NCBI GenBank assembly: GCA_017511965.1
Contig: JAFWHT010000037.1
Span: 1 to 40,051, forward strand
Direction: 5' to 3'
DNA length: 40,051 bases
From: Candidatus Saccharimonadota bacterium
GTDB taxonomy: Bacteria > Patescibacteriota > Saccharimonadia > Saccharimonadales > Saccharimonadaceae
The stretch's first letter is position 1. Each line of letters starts with the position of its first letter. Under the pieces are notes generated by a model. It did not search any database. It saw only the letters and a list, made by a program, of their open reading frames with translations, and had not been told where the DNA came from. A program made the translations under genes and the position numbers. This document shows positions 37,181 through 40,051 of this stretch, piece after piece.

Positions 37181-37570
37181 TTAGATTATACAAAGGATGT
37201 ATTTTGATAAATCCCATATTTTTATAACGTTGCCATACAGAGTTGCTGCGACAATAGGCAGGCCATATATACCGAATAAATTATGTGATGCCATTATTAA
37301 TGAATTAAAGAATATAATTAGTAGACTATTGCACGTTATTCTTTTTAATTGCCTACCTTTTACTTGGACTTTTTTCTCTATCATTAATGCTACGAGAGAA
37401 GCTATTGCTATAGCCAGATTTAAATCGAAACACGACTGTAGAAAATTTTGAATTTTAACTTCGTTGCTTAGTGCTTCTATGTCTTGAATGTTTTGGAGAA
37501 TAAATATGATAGAAGCAACAATTAGGAAGATGGCGATTTCTTTGATTATTATTTTTCTATTATTCCTCAT
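37181..37570 (-). CDS. Small four-helix membrane protein of a two-gene module (unknown)
   Basis: A 129-residue protein with four membrane segments (about 10-26, 48-66, 82-98, 101-118) and short basic loops (EKKVQVKGRQLKR). Not recognised. It overlaps the upstream 287-residue gene by 11 nt, so the two are translated together. Size and topology match small membrane effectors of two-gene phage-defence modules, for example KwaA of Kiwa, but no sequence signature proves that and the gene order is reversed compared with Kiwa as I know it. Confidence 0.68.
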   Translation of the reverse strand: MRNNRKIIIKEIAIFLIVASIIFILQNIQDIEALSNEVKIQNFLQSCFDLNLAIAIASLVALMIEKKVQVKGRQLKRITCNSLLIIFFNSLIMASHNLFGIYGLPIVAATLYGNVIKIWDLSKYILCII

Positions 37571-38423
37571 ATATTATATCGTTCTTTGCTATTGTTATAA
37601 GCTTCTTTTCTAGATCACTATAGTCTAAGTACCGTTTATTATTCTCATCTAATAAAACATCTACGGTATTTTTTTGGTAGTACCTAGTAAAATCTATTTT
37701 TTCTCCATCAATGGTCATTTTTATGTTAATCCCGTCCAGTAACTGACCATTATTTGATAAGATATCTTCGATGATTGGAGCGACCACCTTTTTGATGTTT
37801 TGCCCTCGTTTGCCCTTTAATTTAGTTGTTTTAATATAACCATTGCCAGATAAATAATCTTTGTATTTTTTTAATCTCGTCTCGTCTATATTATCACCGT
37901 AATAATCGTCAGCTCTGAATTCGGCGGTTGTTATAGAATTTGCTTGCATTAATTTTTCTGTTAAGCCTTTTCTGAAGACCATAACAAAGCGTAGCGTTAT
38001 TTTTGCGCAGCCATCCATTTTATCTTTAGCGATTTTTTCTAGTATTTTTCGTAGGGTAGATATTCGAGGGCAAAGATTTATTATAGTCATAGCGAGTGAG
38101 TTGTTTTTGCTATTGTACGCAAAAAGATTTTTATATGATAAGGACATATCTGACGGTATTTCAAGATTGCTTTCATTATCGCCAGTTTTCGTATCTGCTA
38201 TTTTTGGTAGTTCGTCGTTTTTTAATTTGCGTAACGTTATAATATACGTATCAAGCTTTTGTTCGACTAGAAGTATATAGCGATTTTCGTCTACGTCGGC
38301 AATGATTCTGTCTACCAATGGAAGCTGGCTAATTTGCTTGAGCAATTCGCCAAATTCGTAACTACATAGTTCAATGGTTGGATGGTATAGGAATATATCT
38401 TTCTGTTTTATTCTCTCGGTCAT
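37560..38423 (-). CDS. Soluble partner protein of a two-gene module (unknown)
   Basis: A 287-residue soluble protein. The N-terminal half is strand/helix-mixed (ELCSYEFGELLKQISQLPLV, YILLVEQKLDTYIITLRKLK); the C-terminal half has a basic stretch (NGYIKTTKLKGKRGQNIKK) that could bind nucleic acid, then IDFTRYYQKNTVDVLLDENN. No family recognised with confidence. TGGTATAAT (38440-38432, minus) ends 8 nt before the ATG: leaderless. It is coupled to the membrane protein downstream. A sensor (this protein) plus membrane effector arrangement is a reasonable but unproven reading. Confidence 0.65.
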   Translation of the reverse strand: MTERIKQKDIFLYHPTIELCSYEFGELLKQISQLPLVDRIIADVDENRYILLVEQKLDTYIITLRKLKNDELPKIADTKTGDNESNLEIPSDMSLSYKNLFAYNSKNNSLAMTIINLCPRISTLRKILEKIAKDKMDGCAKITLRFVMVFRKGLTEKLMQANSITTAEFRADDYYGDNIDETRLKKYKDYLSGNGYIKTTKLKGKRGQNIKKVVAPIIEDILSNNGQLLDGINIKMTIDGEKIDFTRYYQKNTVDVLLDENNKRYLDYSDLEKKLITIAKNDIIYEE

Positions 38424-38444: not shown

Positions 38445-38717
38445 ATGGGATGGCGACTCCCTTTTAAATTAAAAACTATGGGGTGCGGTAAGCGCGTTTT
38501 TACGAGGTTAGACGCCGAAGACGACAAATGGTACTACTTTTCCCTCGCATACATTCCACGCGCGCTAAATAACCGCGACGTGAATGACGCGATAGTTCAG
38601 ACATTCTTCATTGGTAAGTGGCGCGTCCACAAGCTTTCGCTCTGGGCCAAGCCGGAAGATATCAACCATTACGGCAACGATTCTAATAAAACATTCTGTC
38701 AATTCGTCAATAGATAG
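38445..38717 (+). CDS. Short 90-residue ORF, possibly a remnant (unknown)
   Basis: MGWRLPFKLKTMGCGKRVFT begins a 90-residue, aromatic-rich protein (W, Y, F frequent) ending CQFVNR. Its codons end in C far more often than in the window's housekeeping genes (many CGC, GAC, TTC), which suggests foreign origin. No SD is seen; TTATAC lies about 9 nt upstream as a weak -10. It could be a small intact gene, the end of a longer lost gene, or chance. Not recognised. Confidence 0.4.
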   Translation: MGWRLPFKLKTMGCGKRVFTRLDAEDDKWYYFSLAYIPRALNNRDVNDAIVQTFFIGKWRVHKLSLWAKPEDINHYGNDSNKTFCQFVNR

Positions 38718-38781
38718 AGTCCACTTGGATACAATCGGGTTTTGAAAGTTATTGTGCAGAAAACAGGGGTGGGATTTTTTC

Positions 38782-38811
38782 TTGACACGAGATAGTAAAT
38801 TGTGATATACT
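38782..38811 (+). promoter_or_regulatory. Strong promoter upstream of leader ORF and GHKL ATPase gene
   Basis: TTGACA (38782-38787), 18-nt spacer, extended -10 TGATATACT (38803-38811). A short palindrome ACTAGAACTAGT (38809-38820) covers the -10 end and expected start. A hairpin GATAGTTA-TCG-TAACTGTC (38821-38839) would form the very 5' end of the transcript. The stretch 38718-38781 before the promoter holds nothing I can identify. Confidence 0.75.
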
Positions 38812-38904
38812 AGAACTAGTGATAGTTATCGTAACTGTCGCAATTATCAACAATATCAAACGTAAGTAGTTCGGTAATCGCATCGGACTCAGGAGATAAA
38901 TAGT

Positions 38905-38922
38905 ATGAGATACATTATGTGA
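38905..38922 (+). CDS. Five-codon leader ORF (MRYIM)
   Basis: ATG AGA TAC ATT ATG TGA, preceded by AGGAG (38891-38895) at 9 nt. It lies in the ~165-nt leader between a strong promoter and an intrinsic terminator whose stem begins 8 nt after the TGA. Translation or stalling on so short an ORF could change whether the terminator folds. A leader-peptide role is inferred from position only. Confidence 0.45.
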   Translation: MRYIM

Positions 38923-38929
38923 GTTTTTG

Positions 38930-38954
38930 ACCCCGTTTTAGACGAGGGTTTTTT
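38930..38954 (+). terminator. Intrinsic terminator/attenuator inside the ATPase gene leader
   Basis: ACCCCGT, loop TTTAG, ACGAGGGT with one bulged A, followed by TTTTTT. It lies 29 nt before the ATPase ATG, so the default transcript from the strong promoter would be a short RNA of about 135 nt unless the terminator is bypassed. Confidence 0.75.
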
Positions 38955-38983
38955 ATTATTAAATGTTAAATAGGAATAAAACT

Positions 38984-40051
38984 ATGAACAATCAATTAGA
39001 TATTACTCCAAATGCATCAAAGACTATTGAGAGTTTGCGATATCTTACCTATACAAACACTACAGCGTTGGCTGATATAGTGGACAACTCCCTAGATGCT
39101 AATGCGGAGAATATAACCATAACCATCGATAAAGAAAAATACATCATCATCCAAGACGATGGCTTCGGAATGACATTTGAAACAATGTGCGAAGCTATAA
39201 AACTAGGATCTAACACAGAAAAAGAATCCACAGATTTAGGACGCTTCGGCATGGGACTTGTTACGGCCAGTATATCTATGGGGCGCAAATTAGAAGTCGT
39301 CAGCAAAATAACAGGCCAAAAAGCCCATAAAGTATGTCTAGACTTAGATAAAATTATGGAAACAAACAAATGGTGTGCAGAAGAAGAAAGCTTGACTATG
39401 GACGACGAAGTTCGTATGAACAGCCTTGAGAGCGGAACAGTTGTAACAATTTCTAAACTAGATTCTATAGAGAGGAACATTGCTTCAAATGCAGACGCTC
39501 ATTTTCGTCAAGTCTTCAGAGGATTTCTGTTTTCGGGCCGTACTATAACATTAAATGGCAGACAGATAACACCATTAGATCCACTCGAACGAGACAGGTC
39601 GGAAACACAAGTACTCCTCGAAGACGACATAGATGTAGATGAAGAAAAAGTCCATGTGACGCTCGTACATCTAGATCCGAACAAAAGTGAACTTGCCGCA
39701 AAAAATGACGACAAAAATCATCTAACTTATAATCCAACAAATGAGGGGTACTACATAGTAAGGAATAATCGCGAAATTGCAGCTGCTCAAACACTCGGAT
39801 TATATACTAGACATCCGGAATTCAACCGTTTTCGTTGTGAAATTAGTTACTCCAGTAACCTAGACAAACAATTTGGCATTAATTTCACAAAGAATCATAT
39901 TGAGATGACTAAATCTCTCAGTGACAAGATCGATAATATCACAAAGCAATATCGAAATATGATTCGAAGTCAAGCAAAAAAAGCGTCAGAAGTTGAAGCT
40001 TCACAACAAATAAGCCATAGTGATGCTGAAGAAATAATTAGCCGCAAAAAA
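38984..40051 (+). CDS. GHKL ATPase of MutL/MORC type, 3'-truncated by window edge
   Basis: The frame is open from the ATG at 38984 to the last base (356 codons). GHKL ATP-site motifs are clear near the N-terminus: N-box LADIVDNSLDANAENI (about residues 28-43), G1 box IQDDGFGM (about 52-59) and G2 box LGRFGMGLVTAS (about 84-95). The following region is the S5-like transducer part. This arrangement fits HATPase_c_3 proteins related to MutL/MORC, many of which are encoded with restriction-modification genes, as opposed to sensor kinases or Hsp90. An AGGA SD lies 8 nt upstream. Partners would lie beyond the window. Confidence 0.85.
   Translation, partial: MNNQLDITPNASKTIESLRYLTYTNTTALADIVDNSLDANAENITITIDKEKYIIIQDDGFGMTFETMCEAIKLGSNTEKESTDLGRFGMGLVTASISMGRKLEVVSKITGQKAHKVCLDLDKIMETNKWCAEEESLTMDDEVRMNSLESGTVVTISKLDSIERNIASNADAHFRQVFRGFLFSGRTITLNGRQITPLDPLERDRSETQVLLEDDIDVDEEKVHVTLVHLDPNKSELAAKNDDKNHLTYNPTNEGYYIVRNNREIAAAQTLGLYTRHPEFNRFRCEISYSSNLDKQFGINFTKNHIEMTKSLSDKIDNITKQYRNMIRSQAKKASEVEASQQISHSDAEEIISRKK

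What the first reader, a model, noticed from the sequence alone, without database searches (positions are those of the whole stretch)
38782..38983. Leader with five-codon ORF and intrinsic terminator before a GHKL defence-type ATPase
A strong promoter (TTGACA/TGATATACT) drives a 5' hairpin, an SD-led ORF MRYIM, then an intrinsic terminator 29 nt before the ATPase start. By default this would produce a ~135-nt RNA and little ATPase mRNA. Read-through could be set by translation of the leader ORF, sensing inhibited protein synthesis, as happens in phage attack. Alternatively the short RNA is a functional ncRNA of the system.
Basis: partly seen in the sequence, partly recalled or inferred. Interest (0 to 1): 0.7.

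Follow-up and report, generated by a model that had tools for sequence, protein, structure and literature searches.

The report
One-off attenuator-like leader, MzaB-like ATPase
In a rumen-type Saccharibacterium, a gene for a defence-like ATPase sits behind a strong promoter, a five-codon reading frame and a mediocre transcription stop signal; the parts are real, but none of eight related ATPase genes has them, so this is more likely a local promoter rearrangement with a leaky brake than a proven phage or translation sensor.

Summary
The anatomy is real: one of the strongest sigma-70-like sites in the genome (38782-38811), a 5' hairpin, an SD-led ORF MRYIM (38905-38922), an intrinsic terminator (38929-38955), then the ATPase start at 38984. 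My scan found this combination nowhere else in the 695-kb genome. New facts change the reading. (1) The -35 box lies in the conserved right edge of a truncated copy of a one-gene module scattered through rumen Saccharibacteria. None of 35 other copies has a good -10 at promoter spacing, so this promoter looks like a junction-specific hybrid. (2) Eight relatives of the ATPase each have a promoter 20-72 nt upstream with no terminator and no small ORF. MRYIM with a Shine-Dalgarno occurs in 1 of 174 genus genomes. (3) The terminator is below median strength (-9.2 against -13.6 kcal/mol). Folding finds no winning antiterminator. Among the ribosome positions modelled, only one waiting at the UGA disrupts it, so general loss of translation should favour termination, opposite to the proposed sensing. 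Best reading: a lineage-specific leader that throttles a strong acquired promoter. Ribosome-coupled attenuation is possible but unproven. The ATPase is MzaB-like but far below the curated MzaB cut-off, and its gene is cut by the contig end.

The parts
38463..38807 (+). 5'-truncated copy of a multi-copy one-gene module (154-aa protein; here only its C-terminal 84 codons plus the 3' region)
   Evidence: blastn to 25+ copies within 38479-38807, 81-94% identity in the close copies; protein relatives
38445..38717 (+). 90-aa ORF, the remnant of the module's gene (stop codon at 38715-38717)
   Evidence: full-length relatives are about 154 aa
38782..38811 (+). strong sigma-70-like promoter TTGACA-N18-TATACT with TG; -35 in the module's conserved right edge, -10 at the junction
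   Evidence: 35 other copies lack a -10 of 5/6 or better at 16-19 nt
38819..38841 (+). 5' hairpin of the leader RNA, 10 bp with a 3-nt loop
   Evidence: -10.8 kcal/mol
38891..38895 (+). Shine-Dalgarno AGGAG of the small ORF
   Evidence: sequence
38905..38922 (+). five-codon ORF MRYIM-stop (UGA)
   Evidence: no other copy with SD in 174 genus genomes, none in viral contigs with a slightly stricter pattern
38929..38955 (+). intrinsic terminator, bulged 9-bp stem and T-run, below median strength for this genome
   Evidence: -9.2 kcal/mol; weaker than about three quarters of 80 gene-end terminators
38927..38958 (+). weak alternative promoter overlapping the terminator (TTGACC-N18-TTTTAT, or N20-TATTAT)
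   Evidence: score 7.1 against 13.2 for the main promoter; such scores occur about 2 per kb
38984..40051 (+). GHKL ATPase gene, MzaB-like, 3' end cut off by the contig end
   Evidence: HATPase_c_3 7.6e-27; PADLOC MzaB 8.9e-28; NCBIfam MzaB 109 bits against cut-off 850; contig length 40051

Best explanation
The leader is a local, lineage-specific product of rearrangement. The edge of a truncated repeat module supplies a -35 box that, with a -10 at the junction, makes a very strong promoter in front of the ATPase. The leader RNA then meets a mediocre intrinsic terminator, so most transcripts end as a ~137-nt RNA and a fraction reads through to the ATPase: a roughly constant throttle on a potentially costly protein. 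The small ORF may modulate this slightly, because a ribosome waiting at its UGA would open the terminator. Shown: the parts, the module origin of the -35, and the lack of the arrangement in relatives. Inferred: promoter activity, termination efficiency, throttling.
For: Promoter among the 47 best sites in the genome. -35 inside the module's conserved edge; no good -10 in 35 other copies. Terminator weaker than most in this genome: -9.2 against a median of -13.6. Terminator forms with P ~1.0 without a ribosome and with ribosomes at codons 1 or 3. Eight related ATPases have a promoter 20-72 nt from the start with no terminator, so the gene family does not need the leader.
Against: SD, ATG and a stop 7 nt before the terminator is a neat arrangement that shuffles give in about 1%, and it is unique in the genome. 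No expression data. Termination efficiency in Saccharibacteria is not known to me. No close orthologue of the locus was found in the collections, so selection on the leader cannot be tested.
Confidence: 0.42

Rival explanations
1. Ribosome-controlled transcription attenuator: a ribosome that lingers at the UGA of MRYIM (slow release or peptide-dependent stall) covers the terminator's 5' arm, so RNA polymerase reads into the ATPase; otherwise transcription stops.
For: With the ribosome footprint set for UGA in the A site, terminator pair probabilities fall from ~1.0 to 0-0.46; at codons 1 or 3 they stay ~1.0. Good SD and spacing. About 1% of shuffles have an SD-led ATG ORF ending this close. 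A short ORF with an intrinsic terminator controls vmlR in Bacillus (PMC9226507).
Against: No antiterminator wins over the terminator. No leader like it in 8 relatives, in 174 genus genomes or in viral contigs. General loss of translation would give termination.
Confidence: 0.2
2. Two units: a short independent transcript (38818-38954), a remnant or accidental unit, and an ATPase driven by its own weak promoter overlapping the terminator (TTGACC 38927 with TTTTAT or TATTAT).
For: Relatives carry their promoter at about this distance from the start (5' UTR 20-72 nt); a 5/6 -35 box lies at 38927.
Against: Low score (7.1; about 2 such sites per kb) and poor spacing or -10; the consensus scan lists no promoter between 38811 and 39705 on this strand.
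Confidence: 0.2
3. The ~137-nt RNA itself is functional, a small RNA tied to the ATPase system.
For: Strong promoter, 5' hairpin and 3' terminator are the anatomy of a small RNA.
Against: No Rfam match above chance; no relative of the leader in genus genomes beyond short chance matches or elsewhere in its own genome; folding only modestly better than shuffles (z -1.75).
Confidence: 0.1

Closest known systems
vmlR-type uORF/intrinsic-terminator attenuators of Bacillus (PMC9226507)
   Same: Promoter, very short SD-led ORF (Met-Ile-Asn there, MRYIM here) and intrinsic terminator in the leader of an ATPase gene
   Different: vmlR has mutually exclusive anti-antiterminator and antiterminator helices and a leader compared across Bacilli; here no competing antiterminator wins and no leader relative was found. 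vmlR encodes an antibiotic-resistance ABCF protein; this is a GHKL ATPase.
MzaB of the MzaABCDE anti-phage system
   Same: GHKL/MutL-like ATPase; matches the MzaB profile over residues 7-276. A family member (G075) holds an MzaB-C-D-E run
   Different: 109 bits against a cut-off of 850. The relatives nearest in sequence are not followed by MzaC/D/E but by a protein with RNA polymerase alpha-CTD and sigma-70 region 4 domains. MzaA is described as a sigma factor (PMC9523054), but these proteins gave no PADLOC MzaA hit.
Hybrid promoters formed at ends of insertion sequences
   Same: Outward -35 in the conserved edge of a dispersed element, -10 outside or at the junction
   Different: The module carries no recognisable transposase and its mobility was not shown; it may be a boundary gene of variable regions rather than a transposon.

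Membership tests
uORF-controlled transcription attenuator (vmlR type) | Promoter, leader and intrinsic terminator upstream of the gene | tested here: met
uORF-controlled transcription attenuator (vmlR type) | Translatable short ORF placed so that a ribosome can affect the terminator | tested here: met
   In silico only, and only for a ribosome at the UGA
uORF-controlled transcription attenuator (vmlR type) | Mutually exclusive antiterminator helix | tested here: not met
   Terminator P ~1.0; upstream pairing of its 5' arm is seen only before the 3' arm is made
uORF-controlled transcription attenuator (vmlR type) | Leader conserved with the gene | tested here: not met
   Absent in 8 relatives and in 174 genus genomes; no close orthologue available
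uORF-controlled transcription attenuator (vmlR type) | Read-through changes with translation state | not testable with these tools
   Needs RNA or reporter data
MzaB | Score above the curated NCBIfam cut-off | tested here: not met
   109.1 against 850, gene cut at its 3' end; the full-length relatives were not run against NCBIfam
MzaB | Encoded with MzaC, MzaD and MzaE | tested here: inconclusive
   Contig ends inside the gene; genus relatives have a different neighbour
Hybrid promoter at a dispersed element's edge | -35 conserved in the element's edge, -10 specific to this junction | tested here: met
   36 right ends aligned, the window's included
Hybrid promoter at a dispersed element's edge | The element is a transposable element | tested here: inconclusive
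   50 right ends, 40 left flanks in 28 clusters and 50 right flanks in 23 clusters; no transposase, no target duplication examined

The most novel reading that the evidence does not exclude
A defence-like GHKL ATPase in a Saccharibacterium is induced when ribosomes linger at the UGA of a five-codon leader ORF, so that a disturbance of translation termination switches the gene on through direct masking of the terminator.
Probability: 0.12. Interest if true: 0.65.

Novelty: new variant of a known kind. Interest (0 to 1): 0.3.

Why it matters
If the leader works as an attenuator it would be an example of a defence-like gene in an ultra-small symbiotic bacterium controlled by translation state; my one literature search for attenuation of anti-phage defence by leader peptides returned no paper. 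Even as a throttle it shows how a dispersed gene module can give a neighbouring gene a new strong promoter. As it stands it is one locus in one draft genome.

Tried and rejected
Conservation of the leader: no relative of 38804-38983 in 174 genus genomes beyond short chance matches. The best-looking one (24 nt, L040) is the 3' end of rpsO and I treat it as chance; the genome's own rpsO is elsewhere and differs. Rfam: no family at gathering score in the leader, and only chance-level matches at E 3.6-4.2. Close orthologues of the ATPase: none in genome contigs or viral contigs. The 3' half of the ATPase was not found by tblastn of relatives against the rest of the genome, nor a clear copy of the partner gene (matches to a C29 stretch with alpha-CTD similarity and a 22-23% match on C26). 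Phages and plasmids: no match to the leader DNA or the module protein. Structure of the module's 154-aa protein: mean pLDDT 44, unusable, so no fold search was made. Two counting limits: my leader scan printed some entries with negative promoter-terminator distances, an indexing slip, and I ignored those; the ATPase start was taken as 38984, although 38963 is possible.

Full report
Observation. The window is a whole contig of a 695-kb draft genome and ends inside the ATPase gene. Relatives of the upstream module come almost only from records named Candidatus Saccharibacteria, mostly from ruminant gut, and genus-mates of the window's genome carry it; the name of the window's own organism is an inference from that. 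The promoter is exceptional: 47 of 1.38 million positions score as well. The terminator is real but mediocre, -9.2 kcal/mol with a bulge, against a median of -13.6 for 80 gene-end terminators of this genome; 22% of those are weaker. The SD-led five-codon frame is unusual but not overwhelming: shuffled leaders give an ATG frame with some SD in 6%, with its stop within 15 nt of the terminator in 1.1%, and with AGGAG in 0.8%. Among roughly a dozen promoter-terminator-start arrangements in the genome it is the only one with an SD-led ATG mini-ORF.

Where the promoter comes from. A DNA search in the genus hit the first 20-40 bases of the query in many genomes and the leader itself in none beyond short chance matches. 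These hits are the right edge of a dispersed module of about 560-580 bp that carries one gene of about 154 aa. Copies from public genomes fall into 28 left-flank clusters (40 flanks) and 23 right-flank clusters (50 flanks) in many combinations. The copy in the window has lost its 5' part. The module's right edge reads TTTTTTCTTGACAYGAAACGGTRAA, so the -35 box TTGACA belongs to the module. In 35 other right ends no -10 of 5/6 or better stands 16-19 nt downstream; four have a 4/6 match. The strong promoter is therefore a product of this junction. That resembles the hybrid promoters known at insertion-sequence ends; I did not show that the module is a transposon.

Relatives of the ATPase. The protein is GHKL/HATPase_c_3, MzaB-like in PADLOC, but far below NCBIfam's MzaB cut-off (109 against 850). 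The nearest relatives, about 38-41% identical, are five loci in the genus. In the four loci scanned with Pfam (L095, L096, L097, L099) the next gene encodes a protein with RNA polymerase alpha-CTD and sigma-70 region 4 domains; the fifth locus (L098) has a next gene whose N-terminus is nearly identical to that of L099. A related description calls MzaA a sigma factor (PMC9523054). A more distant family member has an MzaB-C-D-E run. In eight relatives the best promoter leaves a 5' UTR of 20-72 nt, without any terminator or SD-led small ORF. So the leader is not a feature of this ATPase family. Because no close orthologue is available, I cannot say whether it is conserved within the species.

How it could work. 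Partition-function folding gives the terminator's main pairs a probability of ~1.0 when the RNA is free and when a ribosome sits on codon 1 or 3 (the outermost pair counted, 0.91-0.98). With UGA in the A site the footprint reaches 38932 and the pairs fall to 0-0.46. Upstream bases can pair with the terminator's 5' arm only before its 3' arm is made. The prediction is thus: no translation, termination; ribosome waiting at the stop codon, read-through. This contradicts a simple sensor of inhibited protein synthesis, and differs from vmlR, where a stalled ribosome lets an antiterminator form (PMC9226507).

Verdict. I favour a strong, accidentally acquired promoter held back by a leaky terminator (0.42), over a ribosome-controlled attenuator (0.20), a separate weak ATPase promoter overlapping the terminator (0.20) and a functional small RNA (0.10). 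Steps shown: anatomy, module edge, non-conservation among distant relatives, folding. Steps inferred: promoter use, termination efficiency, any effect of the small ORF.

Noticed in passing
window 38463-38807; L158-L213: A dispersed one-gene module (about 154-aa protein of no known family, 51-95% identical to one another in the 12-row alignment's first sequence, two small hairpins before its ATG, edges TACCG.../...CGGTRAA) occurs at many different junctions in rumen-type Saccharibacteria, with left and right flanks assorting in many combinations. It looks like a mobile or boundary gene of variable regions.
   Followed up: partly
L095 3790-7216; L096 5129-8449; L097 5265-8873; L098 133-3003; L099 5099-7984: A recurrent gene pair: MzaB-like GHKL ATPase followed by a protein with RNA polymerase alpha-CTD and sigma-70 region 4 domains (domains scanned in four of the five loci). 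In L096 three further genes follow that look like a type I restriction system (my reading of the sequences, not scanned). Possible reduced Mza-like defence system.
   Followed up: partly
L100 5280-14281 (G075): MzaB-C-D-E genes recognised by PADLOC, followed by a gene that looks like a DNA methyltransferase (my reading, not scanned), in another genus of the same family.
   Followed up: partly
window 37181-38423, minus strand: Two adjacent genes (287 aa, and a 129-aa protein that looks like a membrane protein) with no convincing family match; GC drops to about 0.30-0.34 here. Possible accessory or defence pair.
   Followed up: no
own genome, ends of contigs C4, C10, C11, C19, C26, C27, C29-C31, C34, C36-C38: Many contigs end inside long repetitive surface-protein-like genes (shared motifs such as TQLLDIRDNKVYWATKLQDGHCWMTQNLDLNL), a multi-copy family that probably breaks the assembly.
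   Followed up: no
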